Source: Membranipora membranacea
Taxonomy: Eukaryota > Bryozoa > Gymnolaemata > Cheilostomatida > Membraniporidae
NCBI GenBank assembly: GCA_914767715.1
Contig: OU612065.1
Location: forward strand, 12,584,001 to 12,648,000
DNA length: 64,000 nt
Reading direction: 5' to 3'
Part shown: positions 899 to 56,453 of the stretch, one piece after another
How positions within the stretch are numbered: the stretch's first letter is position 1
Layout of the letters: each line of letters begins with the position of its first letter
The notes under the pieces: model-generated
Told to the model about the DNA's origin: nothing
Database searches by the model: none
Seen by the model: only the letters and a program-made list of their open reading frames with translations
Made by a program: the position numbers and the translations under genes

Positions 899-3593
<2,695 letters not shown>

Positions 3594-6087
3594 GGTATCT
3601 CTCTAGCTTTATATATACACAATCTACAAAAGTAAATTGACCTATCAGAGCCTTGTTAGTGCCACACACCCTAGTATTATAATTTTGACGTCAGGGTTGT
3701 CAAGACAACATACTATGATGATCAAATTCCACAAACTCACGTGTGATGATGCAACACAAAAACTGGGAGGATATCCTTTGAATCTTCTTCCTCTTAGTGT
3801 ATGTATACTGATGCTATACATACATGTTAACCACAGTTAATATACAAAAATGATTAAAAATAAGTCAATATTAACAACATAATATGTTATTGGTAAATGT
3901 GGTGCTCATACTTCTGTATTATTGGGGCGCAATTCTCACGAACGCAGCTCACTCTCAGACTTTGATCATGTGGATACTACAGATATGCTGGCTTCAGTCA
4001 TATATTATTGAATGTTAGCGTCTCACATAATATGGGACAGACATAACTTTGAGGTATGTATAATTTGGGTTACCCAGATACGGACCCAGATACAGACTGA
4101 CGTACATAGATCACATGACCAGCACAGACATAATAACTTAAATCCGGAGTTGAAAAAGGATGACAGTTAATTGCAGGTTTAAAAAAAAAGAGTATTTCAT
4201 AAGCTTGTTTAAAAGCAATCATATAAAATACCCAAGGTGAAACTGGCAAGCGGTGTTAAACCGGCAATAGTGTCTTAAATAATATGTTGATTGAACATTT
4301 CTGTAAAGATAGCTGATAAGATAACAATCACGATTTTATGTTAAGTCTGAGTGAAGTTTTATTTCAATTGTTAGATGTAATTTGGTAGATTATATCTATC
4401 AATGAGTTAGTCAGAGTTGTCATAGCATAATAAAATGACATTCACTAATCCTTAAAACTGCTAAATCTGGCATTTTGGAAACAATGGAGTGGCATAGTGC
4501 TGGCTGCTTGGAGTGAGTGTTGCGGGAGTCTTCGGACAATGGTGGGAGTTCGTTTGATCTTGGTTTCGGTCCCCTTTGCTATCGTGCGATTGGTCTAGAG
4601 AACTGGTCAGCCTGGTGTCCCTATTGTTATGTTGCCCAACTCTGAACTCGGTGTCTAGGGTCAATTCGGTCCGCTATCAGTTACCTATCGAGTGCCAGAG
4701 GAAAATCATGTAATATATTATTTCTCCCTGCGTACACATTTAAATACTATTATTTACATTTTCTCTGACTGGAATATTTAAGATACGACTTTCCAAGTCA
4801 TAATCAAGAATGTACCATCATAAGAAAGCACACACTTGGAAGTAGCTAAAGGTACGATATTTTCCTTTTATTACCATATTTTTACACAAACTCTTGGTAA
4901 ACACTCCTTTGCAGCATTTCTTTCTGTATTTGCATACTTCGCATATACATGTATGCTTGTATTTGATATATTAATTCAAGCTTATTGACTCTAGAGCCTT
5001 ACCATTGTTTTTTATAACATCTTTTCAGACTTTACGGTGTATTTCACGACAAGATATTGCGTAGAATTAATAAAAGATTATCTACAAGATTATATCAGTA
5101 CCATCAGTCATCAGTAAACCTACCACTCTCATTATTCAAGTGCTGTGAACTAGCATAGATTGCTAAAATTTCCAAGAAATCTCCTACGCAGTTTCATTGA
5201 AAATTGATGTCTTAAGGGTTTTCTCGAATCGAAATAAGATCTTAAATAATAATCACCACAAAAGTGTAACCAGTAGTTTTCCGTCATGTTTTGACAGACC
5301 AACCATCATAGATCGTGCCAGAAACTGGTGCAACCAACTGAGCGCAACCAACAACTATTGTCTTAAGCTGTGTATACTTATTCCAATGCTGATTGATGGA
5401 AAAACTCAATTATTTAGAGAATTTTTTCGTAAATTGGTTCATGGAATTATTCCAGCAACCGAAGGTAAAACATTGTATTAACCTCATTTCCGAAATTCCA
5501 AGTAATGAACATTTTTTTCCAAATGATATTAATTTATAGCCAAGTTGATAGTATTCACCATTACGAACATCCGATGTCATGATCAACCCTGAACACCAGG
5601 CACTGAAATACAAGGCGCTGTAATGGCACATTATCAGGGTTGGTTGGTTAAAATCAAGGGTTAGTATCACATACAGCATCCTGGCACAAGGACGGCAAAT
5701 AGTATGTTGCCCAAAAACGCCAATTCTCACTCAGATTATTGACAGGTCAGAGCACACCTGGGGGCCCATCTGATGAATATACGTGCCAATAGAAAGTATT
5801 ATGACTGAACTTTGAAAATTACATATTCGGGCTGCTTTATATGATATGGTTTTAAGTCTTGGGTGCTTGTAGACTTACGCAGTACATATCTTTATCGTCT
5901 CAAACCGAACTCTATTAACTTGACTTGACTAGATTACAGTAAATAATAATTAACAGCTTCCTGGACTGCTTATGTGTATTATTATGTATTACTTCTTATC
6001 GAAATTAGTCTCATGATTTTTTTTAAAGTTGATTACAAAACTACAAAATACATACTCATTGCAAATAGGTACTTGGATACCGGTATA
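3594..6087. other. Intergenic DNA upstream of NT5C2, no gene seen
   Basis: AT-rich sequence with only short chance ORFs. The part at about 4470-4690 is richer in G and C than its surroundings and open on the minus strand for 67 codons, but the product is low-complexity and matches no family I know. The NT5C2 promoter should lie just above 3593; no clear core element is visible. Confidence 0.5.
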
Positions 6088-6665
6088 GATTTATTACAAC
6101 TGCTCCAACGCTCACGATGATAAATCATTCTTGTTCTGACAATTAATTGCAAATGCGTACACTGGCATGACCACCTATTACTACTGCTCTAACGCTCATG
6201 ATGATAAATCATTCTTGTTCTGACAACTAATTGCAAATGCGTACACTGGCATGACCACCTATTACTACTGCTCTAACGCTCACGATGATAATTCATTCTT
6301 GCTCTGACAATTAATTGCAAATGCATACACTGGCCTGACCATGTATTACTACTGCTCTGACGCTCATGATGATATATCATTCTTGCACTGACAATTAATT
6401 GCAAATGCGTACACTGGCCTGACCATGTATTACTACTGCTCTGACGCTCATGATGATAAATCATTCTTGCTCCGACAATTAATTGCAAATGCTTACACTG
6501 GCCTGACCATGTATTACTACTGCTCTGACGCTCATGATGATAAATCATTCTTGCTCCGCCAAGTAATTGCAAATGCGTACACTGACCTGACCACCTATGA
6601 CTACTGTTCTGACGTTAACAATTTTTATAAAAGACCTGCTCTGACAATTAATTGCAATGCATACA
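6088..6665. repeat. Minisatellite, 84-bp unit, about seven copies
   Basis: The landmark 'aacgctca' or its variants recurs at 6107, 6191, 6275, 6359, 6443, 6527 and 6611, exactly 84 bp apart each time. Each unit also contains 'attgcaaatgcgtacactgg'. Because 84 is a multiple of three, single frames stay open over several copies on both strands and give 28-residue repeat proteins. I regard these ORFs as by-products of the period, not genes. The last unit is diverged. Confidence 0.93.
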
Positions 6666-7889
6666 TTGTTGTTAGAAATGCATGTTATGACAATGCATAC
6701 ATTTCTCACTAATGGACAAAAGCCTGGGGCCCAACAATTACCGATATTGAGATATCGCCAGCAGTTTTCGAAAAAGCACATACAACGCTTACACGCTAAA
6801 GACCTGACACTCCTGCTAAGACTGTCATATGTCACAATCCATCCATGCATTGTTATGCATACCTATTGCTTTTTCATGCGTTGTTAAAACAATGTTGTCT
6901 GTTTTACAGCTATGAGCCCATATCTACCAGCAGGTCCCTGTTTTTATGTGCTCTTAATGTAGCAGGATATATTCATGAAATGATCTTGTCTAAGAACGTG
7001 TTGTATATATTTGTCAAGTAAAGCAGCTTGTTTGCTGGCGTGCATATATCTACAGCTACCATCTGTCTGTCTGCTTATTCAATAGGCAAAGGACCATGAG
7101 AGACATGGGAAGTGTTTATGCAATGGAGAGTCCCTAAGTCGATACAACACAGTGTACTCTCAGTTCTTAAAAGTCACAATGACCAGTCGTTGGCATGAAG
7201 GCTCACAAGACCATCACAGAGCAGCTATATGACATCCTGTGACTGTTGTGTGACAGACTCACACAGGAACTTGATGAGTTTGACGTGTTGTGAGGCTGAG
7301 GCCTACGATGCTGCTGTCTGTAGGCCTCGGACAAAAGCATAATTCTTATGATGGTACCAGAGCAACTGAACTCTATTCAAAGTGAATAGTTAGCACTTCA
7401 AGAGAGTGATAGCTCTATATGAGTGCCAAATTTCCTAACTAGGGATAGCACATCATTAGATAACTAGTCATTATTAGCATTATCATTATAGATACATATT
7501 GATGATAATTAATTTGAATTAATTGCAGTTGAGATTAAATTATTGTGAACAGCTGAGGCATGCAGCGCACGCATCTCTATTGTGGTTTATCCTACTCTCT
7601 AGATTTGTGGGGTATATCAAAACATAGACCCATAGGAGTGTGGTGCATTCCTATCCTATCATCGGGTTGTAGTTATCTGCCATACATGCACTTTGTACAT
7701 GTATTCCAGTTGTATTCAGAGTTGTCGACGCTGTGTGAACTGCTAGCCATGGGAGCTGCCATACTTCCCTGACCTACCTCTACATTTAAGATGAATTCTA
7801 CGAAGGACCGCAAGCGGCATCATCTTGTAGCTGTGGTCATCTGCAAAATTTTGTCTCAAAAACCAGATGACCATTGATCTCTAGGGCAA
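6666..7889. other. Intergenic DNA, no gene seen
   Basis: No recognisable coding sequence. A small hairpin (GAGGCCTAC and its complement) sits at about 7299-7329. Short ORFs are present on both strands, with no family resemblance and no splice context. Confidence 0.4.
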
Positions 7890-27696: not shown

Positions 27697-27984
27697 CACT
27701 GAATTAGATTCTTCTCTTAGAATGGAAATAGTATCATAGCGTTATACAGTATAGGACACTAAACACAGGGACTCATCTGACTGTTATCTGATTGGCTGTC
27801 CCTAGTAGCATGAATAATAAGCCTGAGAAATTGTCTTGTTTACAAAATTGCAAACAGTAATTATACCCCTACAGTGTCGATGATTAGGGCATTTCTAGAT
27901 TGCAACTAGGGACTGGCTATTTTTGCAAGCCCTTTGTTTTGCAAAAAAAAGCTAATGATGCTATTCCAGACATGGAATTCAATG
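27697..27984 (+). mobile_element. 288-bp hAT-type MITE, copy 1
   Basis: Starts CACTGAATTAG and ends AATTCAATG, giving imperfect terminal inverted repeats (CAYTGAATT). The direct repeat AAGCATGT flanks it at 27689-27696 and 27985-27992. The 8-bp target duplication and CA-type termini indicate a hAT-mobilised element. A second copy in opposite orientation lies at 45126-45413 with its own different 8-bp duplication. No coding capacity. Confidence 0.92.
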
Positions 27985-31232: not shown

Positions 31233-38268
<7,036 letters not shown>

Positions 38269-38389: not shown

Positions 38390-39413
38390 GCCACCCAGTC
38401 GAATCAAACATTGATTACTTCACTTCAGCCATATGTGCTGATTATTATAGCCAGCGTTCCCAGACTGCTTTTCACAAGGGAATTTGTCGCAAACTCCCTG
38501 GCATCACGGTTAAATAAGCTGGAGTTGCCTTTTCAGGTGTATATCAATAGCTGTACACAATTATAGTGATAAAATATTCTATATAATATAATATCACTAT
38601 GGGTGTATTTAGCTATGAATAGATTATTTTTATAAATACGTAAAATAATGCTGTTTTTTTTTCTACCAGATATTTGTGCTGTCGGATCAAGGAGTTAAAG
38701 ACTCCTTGGTTGGATCGACTTAGGTTACTTTTTTACCTTGGTATTTTTCTTGTTGGGATTTCCTGCTTCAGTCGCAGCTCCACGGTTTCATAATATGGTC
38801 TCTATATTATTGTATGCCAAATTCATGATAAATCCAAACTTCATCTTGGGACATGATAATATGTGTATCAAAATATAGGGAAATGATCGATGTGCTATTT
38901 TTACTTTTTTGTGCATACTTATACCAAAAATTGATAGCAGGCACATAATATCTTCCCTCTCTATATCTCCCTCAACCTGTACACTTTCAGATGTAAGCAT
39001 TCATCCCTGATTATCTGTTAATGGTCTAACCATGGAGTAAAAGAGTTTTTTACTCCTTGGTCTAACCATATACATATAAATATGTATTTATAATGTTTAT
39101 GGTTATGTATAATGCATAATAGGCAGTCTTCATAGTTCAAGACATAATCACCGCCTTTACCACTCTCTCTCCTCATAAAGGAGGATGATCATGTTTGCCC
39201 TCAGAGAGAATTGAGGTGTGCTATCTATCCGGGTAGAATCCCTCAGAGTCAGATGTCATTTCATAACTGAAAGGGGAAAAATGATAATTGACACAAAATT
39301 GAGAGTTGTGCCCTCAGTTTCAGGTTCAACTAGAATGTCACAACCACCCAACTAATTTTCATTATACCCGTTTCCGGTCATACAAAATCTGAATTATCCT
39401 ACACACACCAAAC
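38390..39413. other. Intergenic DNA downstream of DCAF8
   Basis: No gene seen. Two small hairpins built on the same word are present: CAAGGAGT...ACTCCTTG at about 38688-38710 and GGAGTAAAAGAGTTTTTTAC... near 39034-39060, both pairing 'ggagt' with 'actcc'. Confidence 0.5.
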
Positions 39414-39690
39414 GGAAGAGCTTGTTAGCCACATAGCAGGGTAGGTCGAGGCGCAGATTGCTAGTAGAGGCGTGGCTTGCTGCTCTTGTTTTATTGGCTA
39501 CTTATTGTATACAAACATTGTGAAAGCACATGGTTTTATCAGAATTGTGTATATTATGATGTCTTATACTTACAAACACTCTTTATATGCTTATGATATA
39601 TGTCTATGTAATAGCACATATAAATTCTGATATTGCCATTGACATATGCTCAGTTCTGTAGAAACATCCTATATTTTGCAACATGTGCCC
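39414..39690 (+). repeat. Left long terminal inverted repeat (outer part)
   Basis: Pairs with 45505-45781. The shared sequence runs from GGAAGAGCTTG through 'gcgtggcttgctgctcttg' to 'catcctatattttgcaa'. The match continues at 40950-41025 after inserted DNA. A candidate insertion duplication TGTGCCC is seen at about 39686-39692 and 40944-40951. Confidence 0.85.
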
Positions 39691-40363
39691 AGCCGGCACA
39701 ACTGTATCTAAACTATGTTGGAAAGATGTTTACCTTAGAGGCTGAACTACGTCTGCCTAATGTGGCAATCTGTCACACTATTATATGTTGGAATGGTGCA
39801 TTTTAGTAGATATTGTTACGATGCATAAACTGCCTCTGCTACACATCTAACTAGAGGCTTGTATATATAGTAACCATGCGTTTTCTTGATAGCAAATTTA
39901 TACACAATATAATATACCTCAATGTGTATTTCATTTTAATTACGATTTATTAGATTTCATATCAATTAGCAATTAGGAGGGTGTTTTACTCATTGTGAGT
40001 CAGTCCACTGTGGATGTTGAGTAGTAGGCCCATTAGACCATTGGACTTCCACTGCTGTAGGGTGAGTCATTGAGTAATTAGCAGTGTAACTCTTAGAAAT
40101 TATTATGAATACAATCTAGTTCAACTTTATTCGCAAAAAACATTAAGTGGTGCTTAATGCAGGTAATTTAAACCCTGGCTATATATTAACCTATTTCAAA
40201 ATACTGACATGTATTAATGTTTCAAAATTATTGAATAATGGTTTATTTAAATAATTATATTGCACTGTTGTGTTGTCACAAGGGCTTACCAAACGTTAGC
40301 AGCTTACCAGGGGAGATAAATGCAAGTAATGTCTAGAAATTCAACAGCTAAGCAGTTATAAAC

Positions 40364-40866
40364 GCATCGTTCCCATGCAGTTTAGAGACTAGATTGGATT
40401 TTAAGAAAATGGAATACGACAGTGCAAAATAGAATTGCACACAATTTGGAGCCACACAGAGTGGTAGCAAACAAATCGCAAAGCATTTTTTTCCCATATG
40501 ATGCCAGTATTCTTGCAAATTACTCTCTAGTAAAGTAGCTGTAGTTACTGCGCAGTTACCATATTGGAAAAAACTGTGTTGCTTTGTATGCACCATTTAT
40601 GCCTCTATGTGGACATAAATGCATCGTTCCCATGCGGTCTAGAGACTAGATTTGATTTTAAGAAAATGGAATAAAACAGTGCAAAATAGAATTGCACACA
40701 ATTTGGAGCCACACAGATTGTTAGCAAACAAATGGCAAAGCATTTTATCACATATGATGCCAGTATTCTTACAAATTACTCTCTAGTAAAGTAGCTGTAG
40801 TTACTGCGCAGTTACCATATTGGAAACAACTGTGTTGCTTTGTATGCACCATTTATGCATCTACAA
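40364..40866. repeat. Tandem duplication, 257-bp unit, two copies
   Basis: 'gcatcgttcccatgc' starts copies at 40364 and 40621. The two copies remain similar to the end ('gctttgtatgcaccatttat'), with roughly a dozen differences. It lies within the sequence inserted into the left TIR. No coding function is apparent. Confidence 0.9.
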
Positions 40867-41344
40867 GATATTGAATGTTAAACGCGTACCATGCAACACA
40901 GAAACAATCCAATTGCGACATTGGAAACATGTTGCCGCATACAATGTGCCCGCTGGGTGTACTACTAAAACATTTCCAACATTCCAGCTAGTGTAAGACT
41001 TTATTTCAGAAGAGCAGGAAAGACAAGGGACTACCTTCACAAATGACCACACAGCGAAGCAACTGAAAACACCACTTAGTGAGCTGAATTTTGGTGGGTA
41101 GCTTATTATACATCCTAGCCTTATTCAAAACTGGTGTTTGGGGATGTCGAAGATTCTTAACATTTTGCAGCCTCATTTCTTTTCATTTAAGCAGCGACAA
41201 GTGCTACCTTACTTGCATTTAATAATAAATCACAACGCTCGATGGTGCTGTCACAAACAAGGAAGAAACCACTGCAGTTGAATGATGGGAACAAATACTG
41301 CAGATATATTCAACTGAGAGTTCACATTTACCGTATTTGAAAAT

Positions 41345-43474
41345 ATGTTCTGTGTGTCTATTTTAGATCCTTTTGACTTTAGCAAACACCGACTGCGCTT
41401 TGATAATTGTGGGAGAGCCTTAGTGAATGTGTCTTCTGCGATCATGCATTGTTTATATGGAAAAGATCATCATACTGCTCATAAGAGAAAGGAAAAACAA
41501 AGGCGATCGGTAAGCTTACTATCACGTTCAAATATTTACCATGCCTAACCAAGAGGCTTGTCTACCCAGAAGTGTGCTACTCAGAAAAAACTTCTCGGGA
41601 ATATTTTTCAGTTTTGCAAGAGATTGGAATATGAATTGATACGATAATACTATCAGAGGTTCCTGACGATTTAATTCAACCATAGATTTGCATTAAACCT
41701 CTCGCACATCATGGCTGTGTAATTCCCCATTGATGTTTGCAAGTTGGTCGGCCCACTTTTTTACTGAGTGATCAGCACCTACATACTTACTCACCGTGAA
41801 ATAAAATTATTAAAAAACTTGCAATTTGATTTTGGATCCTTGATACCTATGCTGCATCACCTAGACATAATTGTGACTGGTTAGTTAACAAGCATCAATA
41901 GTAAATGAGCCGGAGAACAATTGTAGGAGGTAATCTGTCATATCCATTATTAACAAACACTGGAACTCCCCTTCGCCCATTACAATTCTCTGTTTACACT
42001 AATTTAGATTAAAACATATACAGACGACATAACTATCATCAAATACCAGCCGACACCTGCATCATAGGATTAGTCAATAGTAATACAATGCAATAATTTA
42101 CGGTTGAAAACTGGTAAAACTAGAAATAAAAACCAATCTTTCTACAATATGACTGCATAAGATAAATTGAAGTCAATTTTGCATTTCAATATTATGTTAT
42201 TTCAGATTGACATGGATCAAGATCATCCAGTGGTCAAGAAAACTCGGATGAGTACTCAGAATACTAAAAAGCTTGGATGTCCTGCTGCAATCCAAATATC
42301 CCGCTGCGTCATTTTTCAAGGCTTTGTTGTGAGTATCCCTAATGATTCGTTTAGCTTTTCACTGTTTCTATGCTGTTGTAATGTTGAAAACCTCGATCAC
42401 TTGATCACTTGATCTTTGCAAACAAACTAGACTTACTCACTGTATTGCTGTTGTAATGTTCCACAGAAGTGACAACCTCAATATTGTACACCTCCAATGG
42501 AGTGAAAATTGTACGGGAAATTGCATTAAAATGTATGTACACATGTGTGTATGTTGTGAGAAACCCAGTTACATTATCTTTGTTTCGGTCAACTTTTTAT
42601 TACCAATATCTCGCCTTACTGTAAATTTTCGCGAACATGGCTTTTTTATCTGCATTTGACAATTGCAGCTCACCCAGGATAAGTCTAATAAACATCAGCG
42701 AGTGAAACTAGCTACAGATCTGAAAGCTACAAGGTCAGAAGATATATGTTGGAGTTAGGAGTTCACCGTGTTAATTCCATCTGAGGAGGTCCACAAACCA
42801 TACCATTATACTGGAAAGGTATGGTCGTCCTGATGAATAATTAATCTTTAGCTACACAAGCTTTGTGGGTAAACTACATAGAGTTATTATATATAGAGTA
42901 TATATAGAGTACATAATATACATATTATATATAGAGTATATAATAACTCTATGGTAAATTATTATTGCCATGTAATATAACAGGCATAATATAATATAAC
43001 ATAATAATAATATAACAGGCCCATAGTTCTAGGGGAGGCAGGGAGGCTATGCCTCCCTGAGAATGTTAAATGCTAAAATTGCAACAATTGAAAATTCTAT
43101 GTCGGAGTCAGCTCATTTTGGACTTTCATCTACTATTTCTATTCCTCAACATCTTTCGAGGCTAGTGATACATCACGCTCTGAAGGATTATCGTCTCCTC
43201 TACCATATTTTCAAAACTACGGCCCTGGTATTATCTTAAGGTAATTCCTTGTGGGGTTATGCAGGGTCATCACGTCATTACATGTTCTTAAATCATATCT
43301 CTTTTCTAACAGGAAAACCCAACCTACCAGCCTATAGACCAACGAGTCAAAGAAAAGCTGAGGGATTTAATGACACATTCGACACTAGTTGATGCTACCA
43401 GTATACAGCAGCAGCTAAGAGACTATGTCCAGACACGGCTCTTCACCAGGGAAACAGCCCCTCCTACTTTGTGA
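41345..43474 (+). pseudogene. CARF-like gene, four exons, one in-frame stop
   Basis: Exons 41345-41509, 42206-42328, 42669-42818 and 43313-43474 join in phase 0 throughout with GT-AG borders. Conserved-looking parts are 'FDFSKHRLRF' and 'YGKDHHTAHKRKEKQ' (exon 1), 'NTKKLGCPAAIQI' (exon 2), 'VLIPSEEVHKPYHYTGK' (exon 3) and 'QPIDQRVKEKLRDL', 'QQQLRDYVQTRLF' (exon 4). From memory, the order resembles CARF (ALS2CR8)-type DNA-binding domains found in many invertebrate proteins. TAG at 42756-42758 interrupts exon 3 in the frame that is otherwise open on both sides, so the copy is probably inactive or polymorphic. Exon 4 ends at TGA 43472-43474. It may once have been joined to the Ulp1/PHD exons 270 bp downstream. 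Confidence 0.6.
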
Positions 43475-43744
43475 ATCATGATCCTAAACATATTATATTA
43501 TTTCAAATTATACTTGTGTTAGATTCTTATGTCATGACAGATTTATTCAATTGTAAAAGAAATGAAAAATAGTCAATATATTTCTGTTCAACATTATCGC
43601 ATCTCCAAAAATACCTGATGATCTTAAGCCTGATGACTACTAAGCAGCATCATTCCGGCAACAGTAATGAAGCATTGCCAACCCATGATAAAAACTTCCC
43701 AATTAACATATAAGTTTTTAATACATTATTTCTTCTTCCTGTAG

Positions 43745-44482
43745 GCCTAGAGAAAACACCTGCGAGCAGGATCTATGTAAAGCTGCTGATGGTACAAAAA
43801 CAAGGTAACAGCCATGACTGTGGCCTGCATGCTGTTGCTAACTTGGTCGAAGTTTTGTTTGGTGGAGACCCGCAGGAATCGAGCTACGACCAACTTTCAA
43901 TGAGACAGCACCTACACGACTGTCTGGCTCAGGGTCGTTTTAGTGTATTTCCTAAAGTTGATGTTGCCATGCCTCGCTGTAGAAGAACAACCAAAGTAAC
44001 ATGGTATCGGGTATGTAGGATCATTAACACCACAAGCACTCCCTTTCGGTTTTCTCAAAAGTGCCATATTTTAGATCTATAAACCTTCAACAATAATACA
44101 ATAAAAGTTACTAGTCCAATAAATATAAAAAAGTAGCTCACATTTGTGAATATTTTGGTAAAGATAACTTGAGCTAGACATTCTTCGATAAAAATTTGTA
44201 ATTTAACCTATTATGAAAGAAAATGTATGAACAGTACATAGATGTTCAGTACATATATTATACTCATGCAAAATTTTATTTATATTCTAGGTCTACTGCA
44301 CCTGCCGACTAACTTTTAATCGTTTTGGACAGGATACGGATGATATGATTGAGTGTGAGGAGTGCAAGGAATGGTTCCACAGGGGGTGCGTCCACATTCC
44401 CTGGACAGCCTTTGAGCCCCTCACAAACGAAGTGACCAACTTCAGGTGTAGAAGATGCCGGGGAGGGGCATTCTTGATTTAG
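43745..44482 (+). CDS. Ulp1-like cysteine protease fragment plus PHD finger, two exons
   Basis: Exon 43745-44010 reads in the frame 'LEKTPASRIYVKLLMVQKQG' followed by 'NSHDCGLHAVANLVEVL'. The Q-x(6)-DCG arrangement is the oxyanion glutamine and nucleophile cysteine of C48/Ulp1-type SUMO proteases. 'MRQHLHDCL' and 'FSVFP' follow, as in transposon-associated members. It splices (CGG|GTATGT to TTCTAG|GTC) to exon 44291-44482, which encodes a complete Cys4-His-Cys3 PHD finger: C-x-C, then CEEC, WFHRGC and CRRC, ending at TAG 44480-44482. The protease's catalytic His and Asp should lie upstream and are not visible between 43475 and 43744, so the start is unknown and the protease is incomplete here. 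It may be the 3' part of the CARF-like gene or a separate gene. Confidence 0.65.
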
Positions 44483-45125
44483 TATCAATACTTTTCTCTC
44501 TTTGCACCAATTTAATTATTAATTGACCACTTAATTCTTATGCCTTAAATTTTTTAACACATTTGACTACTCAGGCAGTAAATAAATGTGGGTTGTAAAT
44601 ATGTGGTTTCCGTGCTGGCATGTTTAGAGTTATTAAAGTTATGATTTTAACTCATGTAATTTACTGAATTCTTTTAATATTTAGCTTCATAATTGTTACG
44701 AGGGTGAAACATCATGTCTTTTACTCTTTATTGTATGTATCAGCTTATCAATTACTAATAAATGTCTTTATCAACCTAAAGATATTTGAATGTATACATA
44801 AATATTTATATTTATTATATTGTAAAATCATAGTCTGACCTCCTCAAAGTCAATGATGCCGGTAACAAACATATCATTGTTGTGTTCATGTTGAAGAGTA
44901 GTCAAGGCTTTCCAATTAATAGACCTTCTAAGGATGATTCATCTAATGAGATGAAACCAAGCACAACATGCATATTCCAGCTTTAGGCGTCACAGGGTTT
45001 TGTAAGCCAGAATGAGAAAAATCCGTACCCTCCTGAGGTTTCTAAGAGGCGTTGACACATTATTCTAAGCGCCACAATACCTACAAAGAATAACAGACAA
45101 GTTGTCAGAATTTATATGTGCCATT

Positions 45126-45413
45126 CATTGAATTCCATATCTGGAATAGCATCATTAGCTTTCTTTTGCAAAACAAAGGGCTTGCAAAAATAGCCAGTCC
45201 CTAGTAGCAATCTAGAAATGCCCTAATCATCGACACTGTATGGGGTATAATTACTGTTTGCAATTTTGTAAACAAGACAATTTCTCAAGCTAATTATTCA
45301 TGCTACTAGGGACAGCCAATCAGATAACAGTCAGATGGGTCCCTGTGTTTAGTGTCCTAACCGTATAACGCTATGATACTATTTCCATTCTAAGAGAAGA
45401 ATCTAATTCAGTG
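45126..45413 (-). mobile_element. 288-bp hAT-type MITE, copy 2
   Basis: Inverted copy of the element at 27697-27984, ending CATTGAATTCC on the left and AATTCAGTG on the right. The 8-bp direct repeat GTGCCATT flanks it (45118-45125 and 45414-45421). Same length as copy 1. It inserted into a partial duplicate of the larger transposon's TIR, so it is younger than that duplicate. Confidence 0.93.
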
Positions 45414-45504
45414 GTGCCATTACATAGACATACATCATAAGCAACTTTCCTGCTCTTCTGAAATAAAGTCTAACACTAGCTGGAATGTTGGAGATGTTTT
45501 AGTG

Positions 45505-45781
45505 GTACACATTTTGCAAAATATAGGATGTTTCTACAGAACTGAGCACATGTCAATGGCAATATCAGAATTTATATGTGCTATTACATAGACATATATC
45601 ATAAGCATATAAAGAGTGTTTGTAAGTATAAGACATCATAATATACACAATTCTGATAAAACCATGTGCTTTCACAATGTTTGTATACAATAAGTAGCCA
45701 ATAAAACAAGAGCAGCAAGCCACGCCTCTACTAGCAATCAGCGCCTCGACCTACCCTGCTATGTGGCTAACAAGCTCTTCC
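45505..45781 (-). repeat. Right long terminal inverted repeat (outer part)
   Basis: Reverse complement of 39414-39690 with about three differences. Further inside, 45440-45505 matches 40950-41025. A second, partial copy of a ~40-bp piece of this TIR ('cagaatttatatgtgc.attacatagacat') surrounds the MITE at 45126-45413. Confidence 0.85.
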
Positions 45782-48584
45782 ACACCAAGGGTAGGGGTTG
45801 GCAACGGTCTCAGACTACGTATAAAGATCAAAGGGCTGAATTTTTTTGAAATGTCATTTCTTGATGCAATGACATTTCTCCTACTGGATAAGGATTAATA
45901 CACTTCAAAATGACATAACAGAGGTAAGAAAGACTGTAGATTTGATTTATCACAATGAAAAGAGCCTATGAAATGGCGGTCACATTGTAATGATGTGCCA
46001 AAGATGTGGTGGTAAATCTTGAATATTTGCTTTAAAAATTGACTTATTTAAATTATGACTCAGTTTGTTGCTGTTGAATATTTGGGTCTAAAAGCCCCTT
46101 CTGAATTCTTATAAGATCTTCATTGTTCCCTCTTGTAAATAAGATATGTTGTCACTGCCCGATTTTGCTTGTAATCTTAGCTTTAATGTGATATTTTATA
46201 TTACTGAAATTTTCAATTTTAACCTTTTAAATGCAATGTAACTGCCACCTGATGAATTAGTAAACACAAAAAGTGATGTTGAATATTTGTTCTACACATG
46301 TTTGTGCCTTGGATTTCACTCATTGCCTATGATTTAGGGTGATGTGGTTCTTTAATTCTGGCTTATGATGACAACACCTCTTTTCCGCCTCACAATCTGA
46401 ACTCTTGACTGCCATTACCCTCTTGTTAGCTGTGTTGTGACATTAGCTTGATGTTGTGTCACATATGTGTGTTCCTATGCTATATATCACCCAGATTAGC
46501 TGTATCTGAGTATAATACTGTTATTTTTGTGTCCTTTGGGCCTTCTACTGGGAAACGTTCAGCTAAACAACCTGCCTAGTCTACCTCTACAAAATACTCT
46601 AGTAGTCAAGTTGCTACTAGCTAGGACTCTTTCTTCTTTTATAGGACACTGGAATGATTCTTACAGCTACTACCTCTAGCTACTGGTGCAGCACATGACT
46701 TGTGTGTGCTTATCAAAGAAACAGAATTGTCTTGCCAAGACAATAGAATGTAGCAGGTATTTTTGAAGTACAATATTCCTTGACAAAAGTATGGGCTACT
46801 AGTAGAGCTGCACACCAGGCAATTATGATAATGCAGCATTCGAAATCTGCAAAAGCCATGCAGCTCTATCTGCATCAGAGCTGTTGTAATGCCAATCAAG
46901 TTTAGCCTGGGCAGCCTAGCCTGCTCAGGCTAAATCAAGTCATTATTTTTCTGTTGTACAGTATTCACATGGCTTGGCAATATGGACACCTTTGGGAGTT
47001 GCAAGCTCTTTGACTGCATAATTATGGGGAGGACAACTCCAAAGTGTTGAACAAGTTGTCAATAAACAACCCAGTCTGATCTGGGAGGTCCAAACATCCT
47101 GGTCTGAGCAATTATTACATCTTGACCTGACTAATGTCAGAAGTCATCGATGATCAATAAGACTGCTTTCAATATTATGTTTTATTGTGTAACAGAACAT
47201 GGCTTTCAATGAAAATCATGACGTGATAATTTATATTTTACAGGTCAGCCAGCCTGTATAACAAGTCAGTCAATTCAAGTAAGAAATTCTGCGGGTGCCT
47301 ATTCCACAGTCGGAAAGAGCAGAAAGCGAGCAGTGTGACAATCTGTTGGTGATAACACAACATGGTTGGCTGGTTTACAAAGCGTAAACAGAGTCTATGG
47401 AATGGTGAAACACGGAAACTGAAAGGATTACTAATAAGACTCATTGACATGTCATGTTATGAGCTTTTCTTTATATTGAACTTCCTCATAGAATGAAGAA
47501 GAGTCGGCTTGATAAACTGTACCGTTTTTTATGTCCATATGCATGGAATAAAAAACTTTCGTCTTTACAGGGAAATGTAAACTCGTTAACTTGAAAAGTG
47601 ATCTACCTGCATATGAGCTGGGATGATACTAGCTGTCTTTTGAGAAAATGCTGCAATAAACCAAAAAATCCTGAAACTTTATTGCATCTGCATCTTGTTC
47701 AAGTAAAATTATCATGATGTGATTGACTAGACTTGGGTTGATTCATACCACCATGTCTACACTTAAAAACACTGAGTTGAAGTAAGAATATATATATAAT
47801 ATACTGTATATGCATAATAAATGTTTGCGAATAGAAAAGAAAATTGTAACATGTTGAATATGGCCAGGACATAGATTTCTATAGAACTGCTAGACACATC
47901 GAAGACCATCATTATTCATGCTATTTATAAAATCATTAGATACCTAAAACCAAGAGTTACTCCTTACTGACTGCACTGACAAGTTGACCTAGTGGGTATT
48001 TTCCCTTTATTATTATTGGCTCCTGATTATGTGTCTCAGGGATGAGTGGACTAGTTGCAGAGGTAGGAAGCTCATTGTGCTTGTACCCACCAAGAAGAGT
48101 ACAACCATTGAGGGGAGTTGCAGGGACAGAAAAAAAAGAGGATATTTTAGTGACTGAGTGGTCCAAATGGATCCCTAGACTGTCGGTGACCTATTACTGT
48201 TTTGGACACAATTGTCAGATTTATGTCATCTGCTATGCAGTTTGCATGAGAGAGAGAGACTCATCCACATTTAATTTGTCCAACATCTCCTCTAGTTGCT
48301 AGGATTTTGTAAACAATGATTGATAGTCTGATTTCTTCTCATGATAGGGAAAAGATAACACCAGTAATGTTTGTCTGTATTGTTTTCTAGGACTATATAG
48401 ACCTAGTCTATTATTTCCGAAGTAATATCATAAAATATCTATGACATAAAAAAATACATCGAAACAGGACTAAGACAGTACTATCAGTCTCGTTGCCTAC
48501 CCCTAAACTATGCCCTTGTCCACACCAAACTATTTCCAAATTTTAATTCCATAATATTTTCAATTAATCTCTGTAAGCAGCAAG
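45782..48584. other. Intergenic DNA upstream of RBM7
   Basis: No gene recognised on either strand. A short inverted repeat AGCCTGGGCAGCCT/AGCCTGCTCAGGCT lies near 46904-46931. The RBM7 promoter should lie near the end of this interval. Confidence 0.5.
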
Positions 48585-50744: not shown

Positions 50745-53700
50745 TCATGACTCCTCATTTCCGCTGTCATCATCGTCACTTTCGTACACAAAGTCATCGT
50801 CATCACAATCATCCATATAATCATCGTCGTCATAGAAATCACAAAAGTCACTGCTATTATGGGTTTCTTTTGGTTTTGACTTTATACAATACTCGTCCAA
50901 TGTCTTTGGCACAACAACACCATCCTGCTCTGCCTCTGAGAACGTTGTTGCAACTTGTTTTCTAAAAGTAAGATGTAAAACCGGTGACCAAAAATACAAT
51001 CACAGCATAATATTGATAATCAGGCAACCAAAATTGTCATGTAATGCACCGAAGATGGTCTCTGTGCATTTTTTATTTTCTTAGGTTTGAATATTACACT
51101 ATGTTGCCCATTGTGTAGATCAAGTTTCCCTGTATCCAGGTTTGCTCCCCTTCCACTAACAAACCTGCAGCTGATCAGTGGGGGAAGCAATTCTGAGTGC
51201 AGGCAATCTGGATCAAATTTGATTTACCCATTATGTAATGTTATGTAATGTTATGTGTGGACATCCTTTCACTAACCTTATGATGGTCTCATACTCTTTA
51301 TCTTTGCCTTTTGAATCCCTGAATCTTCTGTACATAACTGAGGCGTCGACATTAGCAGGAGAAAATGTGTTTGGTTCGTTAAGTAGTGAAATAATACTGA
51401 GGAGGATTGTTCTGTAATATAAAAATACAAGCCTTAGTTGAACTCTGCTCTCATCTAACTTGTGTATAGTATGAAACCCTAGTCTCTCTACAAGTTAGCC
51501 ATTAAGGAAACACCACGGATTGCATCAAAATTACATCATCTCTCAGACTGTGAGTGACGAAACTGATTACTGACTCATGACTACAAGGATTTGTTTATTT
51601 CCTGATTCTATGATGCTGAGGAAGTTACACTCAGCACCAGTGCTTTGGTGTGACGATGTCCTGAGATTATACTACTGTGAGGGATCTCTAAAAGCCAAAA
51701 TCATCGAAATATTTACCGAATACCTACTGCAGATTGATTGTTTTAGCTACATTCCAATTCATATTAATTAGCCCATCATGCTGACGGGAAAACTTCTAAC
51801 ACAGCTTGCCAGTTCATGTGACACCTCATCAAATACACACAATGTGAGGTATGTACACTCACACTTACATTAGAATTCTCTATACATAACTCCAATTATA
51901 ATTCAGACACAAAATTTTGTTCTCTTCAAGTTCAACCATATCACAATGCTTAAATAATAATAATTGGCAAAATATGGTGGTCCTCGGAGGTTTGAATTGA
52001 GTGCATTGCACTGTAGTCTATATTTCTTAGGGGCCTAAGCTATATTCCAGATTCTAACCATCACCCCCCTGTCATTTGCTACTCTTATGCTAAATGTATT
52101 TTATTGGTTTTTTTTATGCCATCCTTTTCAGGGTGATCAGTGAAATGAGTTGGTGAAATGAGTATATAACAGGTTCTAATGCGATCCTGGAGAGGTCCAT
52201 GAGCGGAAAATCTTCTCAGTTTCGCTTCGGTAACAGTATACTCATAGCGAGAATATATCAATGATATCTTACCTAACATTTTGAGTTGGGTTCCATCTTT
52301 CTGAGGGGTGTTCACCACTCTGAGGATCATCAGTCGGTGGATGGAGTATCGATATACATACATCACCATTCTCATACACATTTGGGTGCCACATCTTAGT
52401 TATAAACTTGACTGTAGGAGGTGAATATGGGTAATCTGTCGGAAACTTCATCAGTGCCTATAATTTAAGAAACATAAATCTCTCATCGTTTGAAGGATAG
52501 GTTGGGAGCGTCAGGATAGTTTCTTTATTGTTATATTGCTTGGTACTGTAACTTTTGACTACATGTTGCCATATATTGTTTTGGCTTAGTCTATAACAAA
52601 CACATAAAGGTGTCTCCCCATGAAGGGCCCATAGGAAATCTTGTGTTCCATCAGTTTCTACTGTGTTAGTGTCTTCCACATACTCGGGCCTTCCTGCATA
52701 TTGACTGCATGCTGCTATACCTGTCATGATCATCAAACATATCACCACATTCCGACTGCTTCAGTTTCTCAACATGCTCAACATGTCTTATACCGAAAGG
52801 TAGCAATCAATCTGTCACCGTAAATTCAGTGAAACCACCTAATCAACCAGTTTAAATATAGGAAGCCCAACGCCCGACAGATTAGCGACAAAGGAATCAA
52901 TACAAATGCTATTAGGTGTACCAGAAATACTAGTGACTAGGCTGAAGCCAGGTCACAGGCATAAATCATGATTCATTAATATCAATGACAGTGTATGTCT
53001 CTATCATCATGATCGAATCAGCTGATTGCAACCTTTAGTGGAATGGATGAGTATATAAGAGCTTTATAGAGAGGAAAAATCAAACAAAGAAACAAATTGA
53101 TTAGCATATAATATATACATCTGGCTATCATTGCAGATTTGTCATTGGCTCATATTTTTATTCAGTCCTCTCAGTGTTGAAATAATATTGTAGGCCAGAA
53201 GCAGCTATAGCATAAGTTGTTATGGCACGGACGATATTTGATGGCAGGATACTTATCACGTTTTATACTTCATTGGTGTATGTTCTGTAAAATTCATCGG
53301 GTGTACCCAGTTGTAGTGGTCATATTTAGAAATTAAAAGGTGTGTTGTTTTGGCATTATATGTGTGGGGAAATAACTCCTATTCTGTGTAATCTAAGTAA
53401 TCTAATCATTAGGGAATTCAAGGTTGAAATTGCATTGTGGGATTTTGTTGACATGGCAATTAATTCACCAAGTAAACTTGGAGAGAAGGCTGCTCGTATC
53501 AGACCAGCACAAATTGAAAAATTTCAATTGAATTATGTCAAAATTCTTATGGGACTGGTATCAAAGATTATAAATACTTGATGGCAGGATACTTGATGTT
53601 AGTATGATATTGTATGGTCTTAAGACCACTGTCTTGGGGCAATTACAAACAACATTTTTGACGTTTCAATTGCCTCTTATGTCATTTTTTGGCTGGATAT

Positions 53701-56453
53701 CTTTTGCATAACACATGAGCAAAGAGTTCAATGAGTGCCTCACTTTTCAGAAAGAAACCAAACTGTCAGAGTCTGAAAAACTTAGATATGCCAGCTTCGC
53801 ATACTTTCCTAACATGCTAATGACATGATATGGGGATATGCGGTAGCGCTGTCTCTCATCAACCATCTCATGCAATGATAAAACATATACAATGTAGCAC
53901 CCAGTACTATAGTCTTGACTTGTGCCAACTGCATCAACCTCTTGACTTCCCACTAATGACATATCGATAGTGTGAATATTTGGGATATGCAGTAGTGCTG
54001 CGGCTGACCTCTTCAACTGGGTACACACTTTTTTCCTACATCAAATTTGTCTCACTCTATCATGTTTTGAGCAGTCTTATGTCTAGGCTGCTTTTTGTCT
54101 TGTTCTCGTTGAGATGTCGTGCTGTCGCTGACCACCTTTTAAAATGATGTGATATAATATCTTGTTAAAATCATACATATAGTCGTGTTTCCTGCTGACC
54201 ATATTAATCACTTAACATTTCACTTACCTAACCGATTGTGAAGAAAATTGCAGATATGCTGCCGCGCTGCCGCTGACATGATTGCTACAACCGGTTACAC
54301 TCTCAGTTTTGGATTCAGCAAGTTGTTCTACCCTAGATATACCCTTGTTTTAAACTCGTAACATTTCACTTATTATTAGCGATTTTGAGAAAAATTGCGA
54401 TATGCTGCCGCGCTGCCGATCTTCTGCTGACATGATTGCTACGACTGGGTACACTAGACCAAGTTTGGTCCATTTGCCTGCATTCCGAGCTGTGGCTCCC
54501 GATACCCTTGAAACACCTTTTATTTAAACTCTTAATATTTCACTCATTAAAAGCAATTTTTAGAAGAGATGAGGATATGCTGCCGCGCTGCCGCTGACAT
54601 GATTGCTACAACTGCGTACAACCTTAATTTTGGGTTCACCACGTTGTTCCCCCCTAGAAACACCTTTTATTGAATTCTTAACATTTCACTTATTATATGC
54701 AATTTTGAGAAATATTGCGGATTTGCTGCCGCAAGACAGTATCATACTAACCTCATAAAGATCTGACATTATACTAATTGAAAATTTTAAATTTGTCCTG
54801 ATCTAACACGAGCAGACTGCTGCAAGTTTACTTGGTAAATAAATTGGCAAGTCAACAAAATCCCCACAATGCTGTTTCAACCTGGAATTCCCTGAAGATT
54901 AGTTTAGTAAGATTACACAGAATAGGAGTCATGTCCCCACACATATAATGCAAAAACAAAACACCTTTTAATTTCTAAATATGACCACTACAACTGGGTA
55001 CACCCGGTGAATTTTACAGAAGAAACATCAATGAAGTATAATATGCGATCAGTTTCCTGCCATCAAAAATTGTCCGTGCCATTATTTTATAGAGCAGTTA
55101 CAGCTAGGCTGCTTCTGGCCTATTGACTAAGTAAACCAAGTGACCAAAACAAAGGAGCAAACAACAACAAAAAAACTTCAACAACACAAAACCATCACAA
55201 CCACAGCACTAGAGGGCCAATTTCACCGGCAGTTCAACTTCAATCCAATTGCTACACTGAGAAAATAGTTCGACAATATTTATCTTCTATTTATTGTGTG
55301 CAATAACAAAAAGGGCAAAAGGTGGTGATTTCTTAAAATCGAATAACAAAGACACAGTCACGGTTGGTCAATAATTGATTGACTAAACTGTCGAATCTTC
55401 AAAGCAATCAAACTCGCTCATTGATGGATCTAAACATGACACTCTTGGCCCTGTCTTAACAAAGCTAAATCCCAAAAAATGAAAATAAATTTTGCGATCA
55501 CATTACTCTGTTGGATAAGAGAGTCCAGTATAAGAAATTAAAATTACAACTGTCCAGGCATCCGTGCTTAGATGAAGAGGAACTGCTTAGTATGCCTAAC
55601 GTTCATAAGTATTTTTTGGGCTCTGTCGATCCCACCAGCCGAACAAGAAAAGTCAAACCTTTCACAACGGTGAATACAACAGTAGTTCATCAAAGACCGT
55701 ACCTCTGTAGCGGTAGGTAAACTGAGGAACAGAATATGAGGTTAGGGGTCTAAACTTCTTGGGATGAGAATTACAAGCGACATGATTCTGTTGCTTAAAT
55801 TAAGGAGTAAGAGAGCACTCATTGGGTAGATATCTCAAGTACTTTCACTACGGCAAAATGTTCTCGATATTATCCCGGCAGCCGGTACCTAATCAGTGTC
55901 AAATCAATAGCTCTCATATACACTGAATTTTTTCACCAAGTAACAGGAGTTTGAAGATGAATATCACAGTCACTTATCACAGAAGAAGGGACAGTCGCTT
56001 TTTTCTAACGAGAGAGTCAGTCGACTGAGTCACTCTGTACAGTCACCTACAACAAGAAGCGTTACGTGCGCTGAACGCCAACTTCATTAGTACTTGTGAC
56101 TGACATTACATTTACACATATTACTGTAAAACAACCCCAATCCTCTTTCAACATCAATAATGAGTTAAGTGACAAAATAATGTATTAATAGATAGATGAA
56201 ACCCATGAACCGTTACAATTACTCCACAAAAAACTACCCCCTCTCATTATCAAGATAAGCTACAGCACCATCATACCTTGAAGTATCCAGCTTCATAAAT
56301 AGTGCATGGAGGTCCAAATATTGCAACTTCCCAAGCAAACAGATTACTCTCATTAGCCAGTTTTACTCTGAACCCTTCAACTGGTTCTTCCATCATTTTT
56401 TTCAGTTCTAACTGTAAGGCTTTCACTGCTCCGGATGATGGGCTCTGAGCCAT
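50745..56453 (-). CDS. UBE2R2: Ubiquitin-conjugating enzyme E2 R (CDC34 family)
   Basis: E2 enzyme that works with cullin-RING (SCF) ligases to build K48-linked ubiquitin chains. Minus-strand exons are 56453-56277, 52457-52273, 51411-51277 and 50961-50745, in phase with GT-AG borders, giving 237 residues (human UBE2R2 has 238). The UBC fold runs from about residue 8: 'EEPVEGFRVKLANESNLFAW', 'VAIFGPP', 'YPYSPPTVKF', 'MWHPNVYENGDVCISILHPP' with catalytic Cys93 and the CDC34-type acidic insertion 'TDDPQSGEHPSERWNPTQNV'. The C-terminal tail is highly acidic and ends 'YESDDDDSGNEES', almost identical to vertebrates. Intron 1 is about 3.8 kb and contains a 1.9-kb transposon. UBE2R1/CDC34 and UBE2R2 are vertebrate paralogues; this is their invertebrate orthologue. 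Confidence 0.96.
53191..55122. mobile_element. 1.93-kb non-autonomous DNA element with long TIRs in UBE2R intron 1
   Basis: Ends are TAGGCCAGAAGCAGC at 53191 and its inverted copy GCTTCTGGCCTA ending at 55122. Inverted similarity continues for about 430 bp with indels (for example 'aattaaaaggtgtgttgttttg' opposite 'caaaacaccttttaattt'). TTG flanks both sides (53188-53190 and 55123-55125), a possible 3-bp target duplication. The centre is a tandem repeat. An 80-codon ORF at 53342-53581 is a by-product of the arm. No transposase. Confidence 0.8.
54240..54735. repeat. Tandem repeat, ~146-172-bp unit, three to four copies
   Basis: 'gatatgctgccgcgctgccg' recurs at about 54253, 54399 and 54571, with a fourth, shorter copy 'gatttgctgccgc' near 54720. 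Each is followed by 'ctgacatgattgctacaac.g' and 'cacttatta'. It forms the core of the long-TIR element in UBE2R intron 1. Confidence 0.85.
55511..55710 (+). other. Unassigned open stretch with a donor site, antisense within UBE2R intron 1
   Basis: About 69 codons are open on the plus strand ('DEEELLSMPNVHKYFLGSVD', 'VKPFTTVNTTVVHQRPYL') and reach CTGTAGCG|GTAGGT at 55711. Composition is protein-like and not repetitive. I do not recognise a family and see no upstream acceptor in phase. It could be an exon of an unrecognised gene nested opposite to UBE2R, or chance. Confidence 0.25.

What the first reader, a model, noticed from the sequence alone, without database searches (positions are those of the whole stretch)
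39414..45781. Recently active long-TIR transposon carrying CARF-like, Ulp1-like and PHD-finger exons
Two inverted copies of at least 275 bp, nearly identical by eye, bracket 6.37 kb that contains exons for a CARF-like domain, a DCG-box protease fragment and a complete PHD finger. Genes with this domain mixture are common in sponges and cnidarians but are usually annotated as host genes of unknown function. Here the bracketing TIRs suggest they travel as transposon cargo or encode part of the mobilisation machinery. Ulp1 proteases are known passengers of several DNA transposon groups (for example Zisupton-like and some Mutator-like elements). No known transposase catalytic domain is visible, so the CARF-like part could itself be relevant. 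The TIRs and domains are seen; the transposon interpretation is inference.
Basis: partly seen in the sequence, partly recalled or inferred. Interest (0 to 1): 0.75.

Follow-up and report, generated by a model that had tools for sequence, protein, structure and literature searches.

The report
Deletion copy of a Mutator-like transposon
The inverted repeats mark a real multi-copy jumping gene of the Mutator type, and the odd mixture of protein pieces between them is the leftover head and tail of its own transposase, whose cutting core has been deleted, rather than captured host genes.

Summary
The arms are 337-bp TIRs (331/337 identical once a nested 1,270-bp insert is set aside). The assembly (339 Mb, 18 contigs) holds 57 such termini, 25 pairs by my count. 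Of 23 copies with both ends read, 16 have a perfect 9-bp target duplication and 2 an 8-bp one, as in Mutator-like elements (MULEs). Copies differ in internal deletions. 'CARF' is Pfam ALS2CR8 (calcium-responsive transcription factor), not CRISPR CARF. In the same genome an 8.4-kb element with 35-bp TIRs encodes, in order, ALS2CR8, MULE DDE core, SWIM finger, Ulp1 protease and PHD; the window family's exons match it at 46-56%. Two same-family copies keep the first ~24 codons of the DDE exon, fused by deletion to the PHD exon. So the window element is a non-autonomous deletion derivative: the two ends of a transposase gene, catalytic core lost. No intact same-family core was found. An ALS2CR8-MULE transposase was not found in the papers searched and may link the CaRF transcription factor to transposons.

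The parts
39405..39413 (.). Left target-site duplication ACACCAAAC
   Evidence: 7 of 9 match with 45782-45790; 2 of 462 mismatched flank pairs reach 7, none 8 or 9
39414..39687 (+). Left TIR, outer 274 bp
   Evidence: 271/274 identical to the right arm; family TIR genome-wide
39688..40957 (.). Nested 1,270-bp insert that splits the left TIR; 13-bp inverted ends (12/13), TG duplicated; holds a two-copy ~256-bp tandem repeat (40358-40863)
   Evidence: absent from the TIRs of the other copies aligned
40960..41022 (+). Left TIR, inner 63 bp
   Evidence: continues the alignment to the right arm, 331/337 in all
41366..41509 (+). Exon with N-terminal part of ALS2CR8 domain
   Evidence: PF15299 E 0.006, below cut-off; 39% to L038; splice donor by eye
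42206..42328 (+). ALS2CR8 exon 2
   Evidence: PF15299 E 8e-7 over cut-off
42669..42733 (+). Probable ALS2CR8 exon 3
   Evidence: splice signals by eye; frame kept in L031 and L034; no Pfam match of its own tested
43313..43471 (+). ALS2CR8 exon 4, truncated by deletion and ending in a stop
   Evidence: PF15299 E 1e-4, below cut-off; the longer version in L017 scores 7.8e-10
43745..44011 (+). Ulp1 (C48) C-terminal half with DCG box; His/Asp half missing
   Evidence: PF02902 E 0.03, below cut-off; 50% to L039, whose joined Ulp1 exons score 4.4e-8
44291..44482 (+). PHD finger exon with stop codon, spliced in frame to the Ulp1 exon
   Evidence: PF00628 E 2.8e-8; splice phase by eye
45101..45443 (.). 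Diverged subterminal repeat of TIR positions ~175-217, interrupted by the MITE
   Evidence: the same repeat recurs beside the TIR in other copies
45126..45413 (.). Nested 288-bp hAT-like MITE with 8-bp duplication GTGCCATT
   Evidence: second copy 27697-27984 with duplication AAGCATGT
45445..45781 (-). Right TIR, 337 bp
45782..45790 (.). Right target-site duplication ACACCAAGG

Best explanation
A non-autonomous, internally deleted copy of a Mutator-like (MULE) DNA transposon. The parent encoded one multi-exon transposase in the order ALS2CR8 (DNA binding, by analogy with CaRF), MULE DDE core, SWIM zinc finger, Ulp1 cysteine protease, PHD finger. Copies such as this keep the long TIRs and the two ends of the gene but have lost the catalytic core and the His/Asp half of the protease. 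They can move only when a transposase made elsewhere recognises their TIRs, cuts them out and inserts them with a 9-bp stagger. Shown: TIRs, copies, 9-bp duplications, differing deletions, a DDE stub in sister copies, the domain order in relatives of the same genome. Inferred: mobilisation in trans; deletion by interrupted gap repair; roles of ALS2CR8 (TIR binding) and Ulp1/PHD (countering silencing, or transposase processing).
For: 57 termini, reversed control 0; 16 of 23 copies with a perfect 9-bp and 2 with an 8-bp duplication; different internal deletions with 3-6 base overlaps at several junctions; L039/L046 element with ALS2CR8, MULE DDE (PF10551 5.7e-12), SWIM, Ulp1 (PF02902 4.4e-8) and PHD, each over its cut-off, 35-bp TIRs and a 9-bp duplication; L034 and L035 keep a splice acceptor and the first ~24 DDE codons fused to the PHD exon, L035 with family ends and a perfect 9-bp duplication; L047, 83% identical at its 3' part, keeps DDE1 and DDE2.
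Against: The window copy has no DDE and no intact same-family DDE was found (37 matches, 46 of 46 candidates scored; 25 matches, 37 of 37), so the family's own transposase is reconstructed from stubs and relatives. L011, L027 and L030 show no duplication; L030's right end runs into an inverted TIR piece. The L039 duplication AAATTTTTT is T-rich, and ALS2CR8 exons 1-3 were not found in L039. The PF10551 genome search did not complete.
Confidence: 0.92

Rival explanations
1. Pack-MULE style capture: the element picked up fragments of host ALS2CR8, Ulp1 and PHD genes as cargo.
For: Ulp1 has been captured by plant MULEs (passages of PMC13317346); ALS2CR8 also occurs in this genome at loci without a detected DDE (L036, L040-L043).
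Against: The same domains, in the same order, flank a MULE core in L038 and L039, and family copies L034 and L035 keep the start of the DDE exon between ALS2CR8 and PHD.
Confidence: 0.03
2. The leftovers are kept for a job: a short ALS2CR8-PHD protein from deleted copies represses or protects the family (as KP does for P elements, recalled).
For: ALS2CR8 exons and PHD stay readable in most copies compared; stops in 2 copies for exon 1, 1 for exon 2, none for exons 5 and 6; one copy with an indel in exon 6.
Against: 34 non-synonymous against 13 synonymous changes over four exons, near the neutral expectation of about 3 to 1; copies are young, so open frames mean little; deletions differ and often remove Ulp1 or PHD.
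Confidence: 0.06
3. It belongs to Rehavkus, the MULE-like group with PHD finger and 9-bp duplications, not to MULEs proper.
For: Rehavkus: 9-bp TSD, TIR 26-400 bp, PHD. L034 has a tandem array of roughly 59-bp units beside the family sequence (not followed up).
Against: No minisatellite before the 3' TIR of the window copy; relatives match PF10551 MULE and carry SWIM and Ulp1, which the Rehavkus row does not list.
Confidence: 0.06
4. An unrelated segmental inverted duplication.
For: None beyond two inverted arms in one window.
Against: 57 termini in the genome, different flanks, 9-bp duplications.
Confidence: 0.005

Closest known systems
Mutator-like elements (MULEs) of animals
   Same: Long TIRs, 8-11 bp duplications, DDE plus zinc finger (traits from passages and section 6 of PMC6446971); relatives match PF10551 and SWIM
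   Different: ALS2CR8 at the N-terminus; the window copy has no DDE core; clade not determined
Mutator transposases with Ulp1 and PHD of hydra and lancelet (Ginger paper)
   Same: Ulp1 and PHD are aligned for Mutator transposases, and Mutators of hydra and lancelet with Ulp1 are cited (passages of PMC2836005)
   Different: No ALS2CR8 mentioned there (0 occurrences)
Ginger1 transposons
   Same: Ulp1 and PHD at the C-terminus, TIRs 40-270 bp
   Different: Ginger1 has 4-bp CCGG/CCGT duplications, TGTNR ends and a Gypsy-type integrase; here 9 bp, GGAAGAG ends and MULE DDE relatives
Rehavkus
   Same: 9-bp duplication, long TIRs, PHD finger
   Different: No minisatellite before the 3' TIR in the window copy; relatives carry SWIM and Ulp1
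Plant KIU/VANDAL MULEs with Ulp1
   Same: MULE carrying an Ulp1 domain (passages)
   Different: There Ulp1 lies in a separate non-TIR element gene (VANC/KIU); here it appears to be part of the transposase gene

Membership tests
MULE | Target duplication of 8-11 bp | tested here: met
   16 of 23 copies perfect 9 bp, 2 with 8 bp; window copy 7 of 9
MULE | Long terminal inverted repeats | tested here: met
   337 bp
MULE | MULE DDE core in this copy | tested here: not met
   No such Pfam hit in the window exons scanned; it is non-autonomous
MULE | MULE DDE core in the family's parent | tested here: inconclusive
   ~24-codon DDE stub in L034 and L035; DDE in L047, an 83% relative: PF21056 27.1 bits (cut-off 27.2), PF10551 19.6 (cut-off 27.6); no intact copy
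MULE | MULE DDE and SWIM in relatives with the same domain order | tested here: met
   L038 and L039 PF10551, PF21056 and PF04434 over cut-off
Ginger1 | 4-bp CCGG/CCGT duplication | tested here: not met
   9-bp duplications
Ginger1 | TGTNR 5' end | tested here: not met
   Ends GGAAGAGC or GGGAGAGC, GGACGAGC once
Rehavkus | Minisatellite before the 3' TIR | tested here: not met
   Only two short arrays, at 42888-43017, in the window copy; an array in L034 was not followed up
Rehavkus | Rehavkus DDE placement | not tested
   No reference sequences held
Zisupton/KDZ | KDZ transposase domain | tested here: inconclusive
   No KDZ hit listed for the proteins scanned, which are exons only
CRISPR CARF | CRISPR-associated Rossmann-fold profile | tested here: not met
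   Pfam lists ALS2CR8 and no CRISPR CARF family for these exons

The most novel reading that the evidence does not exclude
ALS2CR8, the family of the animal transcription factor CaRF/CARF, is the N-terminal DNA-binding domain of a lineage of animal MULE transposases that also carry SWIM, Ulp1 and PHD, and host CaRF genes arose by domestication of such a transposase, as FAR1/FHY3 did in plants.
Probability: 0.3. Interest if true: 0.6.

Novelty: new variant of a known kind. Interest (0 to 1): 0.4.

Why it matters
The intact architecture ties a domain known from a transcription factor, a SUMO-protease-like domain and a chromatin reader to one DDE transposase, a combination worth testing for anti-silencing. 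The ALS2CR8 link suggests a testable origin for the CaRF transcription factor.

Tried and rejected
Protein search with the six joined exons: 348 candidates, none at E <= 0.001. Terminal 24-mer in viral and prokaryote genome contigs: 0. PHD exon in viral contigs: 78 pattern matches, none confirmed. Phage records: no match. Considered and rejected or held unlikely: CRISPR CARF, Ginger1, Zisupton/KDZ, segmental duplication, gene capture, Rehavkus. Selection on four retained exons: no clear constraint. L044 holds a separate MULE (PF10551 1.7e-12) upstream of its ALS2CR8 hit; not counted as support. Literature: ALS2CR8 with transposase 0 papers; PF15299 0; 'calcium-responsive transcription factor' with transposase and domain 2 papers, of which I read passages of one, incidental, and saw only the listing of the other. 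In (20 of 233 listed; 10 of 31,401 listed) the only listed paper with the word ALS2CR8 was PMC5454887, seen as a listing. These cover the held open-licence library only.
Full report
The observation. The two arms exist at the stated coordinates: 274 nt, 271 of 274 identical. They are the outer part of longer arms. In the left arm a 1,270-bp insertion at 39688-40957, with 13-bp inverted ends (12/13) and a duplicated TG, splits the TIR; setting it aside gives 337-bp arms with 331 identities and no gaps. A second nested insertion, a 288-bp MITE at 45126-45413, has an 8-bp duplication and a 97%-identical second copy at 27697-27984 with its own 8-bp duplication. Without these two the element is about 4.8 kb.

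It is a transposon. The own genome (339,339,785 bases, 18 contigs, unnamed) gives 61 matches to the outer TIR, with only 40 of 192 candidates scored. A pattern search for a terminal 33-mer with up to 3 mismatches gives 57 termini, 28 and 29 on the two strands, control 0; by my reading of that list they form 25 pairs including the window copy (24 of them 1.6-6.4 kb apart, one about 15.6 kb) and 7 single ends. I fetched 24 regions around TIR hits. Twenty-one of them, and the window copy, had both ends placed; L023, L031 and L032 did not. Of these 22, 15 have a perfect 9-bp duplication and 2 an 8-bp one; the window copy and L025 have 7 of 9; L011, L027 and L030 have none, L030's right end being a guess that runs into an inverted TIR piece. 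Among 462 mismatched flank pairs none reaches 8 of 9 and 2 reach 7. L035, fetched later, has a perfect 9-bp duplication, making 16 of 23. Left and right TIRs of one copy differ by a median of 2 in 274 over 19 copies (L025, L026 and L030 left out), and left TIRs of different copies by a median of 1.5% over 231 pairs.

Copies are deletion derivatives. Aligned to the window element, other copies lack different internal stretches, for example window-equivalent 42750-43708, 43456-44425, 42642-43789, 42298-43636 and 41259-44442, with 3-6 base overlaps at several junctions and none at others. L017 (4,798 bp) keeps a longer ALS2CR8 exon than the window.

What the exons are. 'CARF' is ALS2CR8, Pfam PF15299. 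A genome search for PF15299 gave 22 hits with 105 of 105 candidates scored. I fetched 12 regions around hits outside the copies already held. L038 and L039 contain, in one orientation, ALS2CR8, a DDE core matching PF21056 and PF10551 over cut-off, a SWIM finger over cut-off and Ulp1 (for L038 by similarity to L039); L039, and L045 next to L038, show the PHD. L037 has ALS2CR8, DDE and SWIM and weak Ulp1 similarity. The L039/L046 element is 8,424 bp (C11:20288250-20296673 by my arithmetic), with 35-bp TIRs starting GAAAATCGC and a T-rich 9-bp duplication; ALS2CR8 exons 1-3 were not found in it by tblastn. The L038 locus has 46-bp inverted ends but I could not fix its duplication; a nested insert in copy L026 with those same ends has a clear 9-bp duplication, GAATTTATA, and a DDE fragment. 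Identities between the window family and L039 are 56% for ALS2CR8 exon 4 (L017 version), 50% for Ulp1 and 46% for PHD.

The missing core. L034 and L035 are copies of this family (96-98% in long shared stretches). Both keep a splice acceptor and the start of the DDE exon, then jump into the PHD exon. L035 has family ends and a perfect 9-bp duplication; L034 is partial. L047, 83% identical to the family at its 3' part, keeps DDE1 and DDE2 before its own deletion junction; its DDE1 scores 27.1 bits for PF21056 (cut-off 27.2) and 19.6 for PF10551 (cut-off 27.6), so below both. DDE searches of the genome found no intact same-family core: 37 matches with 46 of 46 candidates scored and 25 matches with 37 of 37 scored; besides L047 the only trace near this family is the L035 stub. 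So the family's own source gene is lost, or not in this assembly, or too diverged for these queries.

How it works. Best reading: a non-autonomous MULE moved in trans. Shown: ends, duplications, copies, deletions, domain order in relatives, DDE stub. Inferred: trans-mobilisation, abortive gap repair as the deletion mechanism, ALS2CR8 as the TIR binder, Ulp1/PHD as helpers against silencing or in transposase processing. The window copy has only the DCG half of Ulp1, so its protease should be inactive. Changes across copies in four exons (34 non-synonymous, 13 synonymous; neutral expectation about 3 to 1) give no clear sign that the leftovers are kept for a function.

Comparison with print. Ulp1 in Ginger1 and Mutator transposases, with PHD in some, is reported (passages of PMC2836005). 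MULE traits and clades come from PMC6446971 (passages and section 6). Plant KIU/VANDAL Ulp1 comes from passages of PMC13317346. PMC13359780 (arthropod MULEs) was only searched for terms: no Ulp1, PHD, SWIM or ALS2CR8 in its main text. ALS2CR8 as part of a transposase was not found in the searches, which cover the held open library only. Recalled, from no call: similar ALS2CR8/MULE proteins probably sit unannotated in cnidarian and sponge protein sets, and KP elements as repressors. That FAR1/FHY3 derive from MULE transposases is in the abstract start of PMC13306707 (listing).

The bold reading. Of the 12 regions fetched around ALS2CR8 hits, L037, L038 and L039 have a DDE exon in line with ALS2CR8 and L033 a weak one; L034 and L035 are family copies with the DDE stub; L036, L040, L041, L042 and L043 show no such DDE by tblastn with L039 queries; L044 has an unrelated MULE nearby. 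So in this genome ALS2CR8 occurs both in MULE transposases and apparently apart from them. That fits domestication of CaRF from a MULE, but capture in the other direction is not excluded.

Noticed in passing
27697-27984 and 45126-45413: A 288-bp hAT-like MITE, two copies 97% identical, each with its own 8-bp duplication; another copy, itself interrupted, sits in the TIR of L025.
   Followed up: partly
39688-40957: Nested 1,270-bp insert with CCCAGC(C/G)GGCACA ends, TG duplicated and a two-copy ~256-bp tandem repeat; superfamily not identified.
   Followed up: partly
35669-36188: A palindrome-like stretch of about 520 bp matching its own reverse complement at 79%.
   Followed up: no
53222-53540 and 54764-55082: Another inverted pair, 87% over 321 columns, with direct repeats between.
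   Followed up: no
6089-6668: Tandem direct repeats with a spacing of about 84 bp.
   Followed up: no
L034, about 2812-3819 counted on its reverse strand: A tandem array of roughly 59-bp units beside the family sequence; bears on a Rehavkus-like reading.
   Followed up: no
L026, about 4098-5292: A nested insert with L038-type ends, a 9-bp duplication and a DDE fragment; similar DDE fragments recur at about a dozen places in the genome.
   Followed up: partly
L044:8779-9270:-: A separate MULE transposase fragment, PF10551 1.7e-12.
   Followed up: partly
L041, L042, L043: ALS2CR8 hits without a detected DDE, near long ORFs that share an 'NPDF/NPNC'-like stretch by eye; perhaps host CaRF-like genes. 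Two of these ORFs have no Pfam hit.
   Followed up: partly
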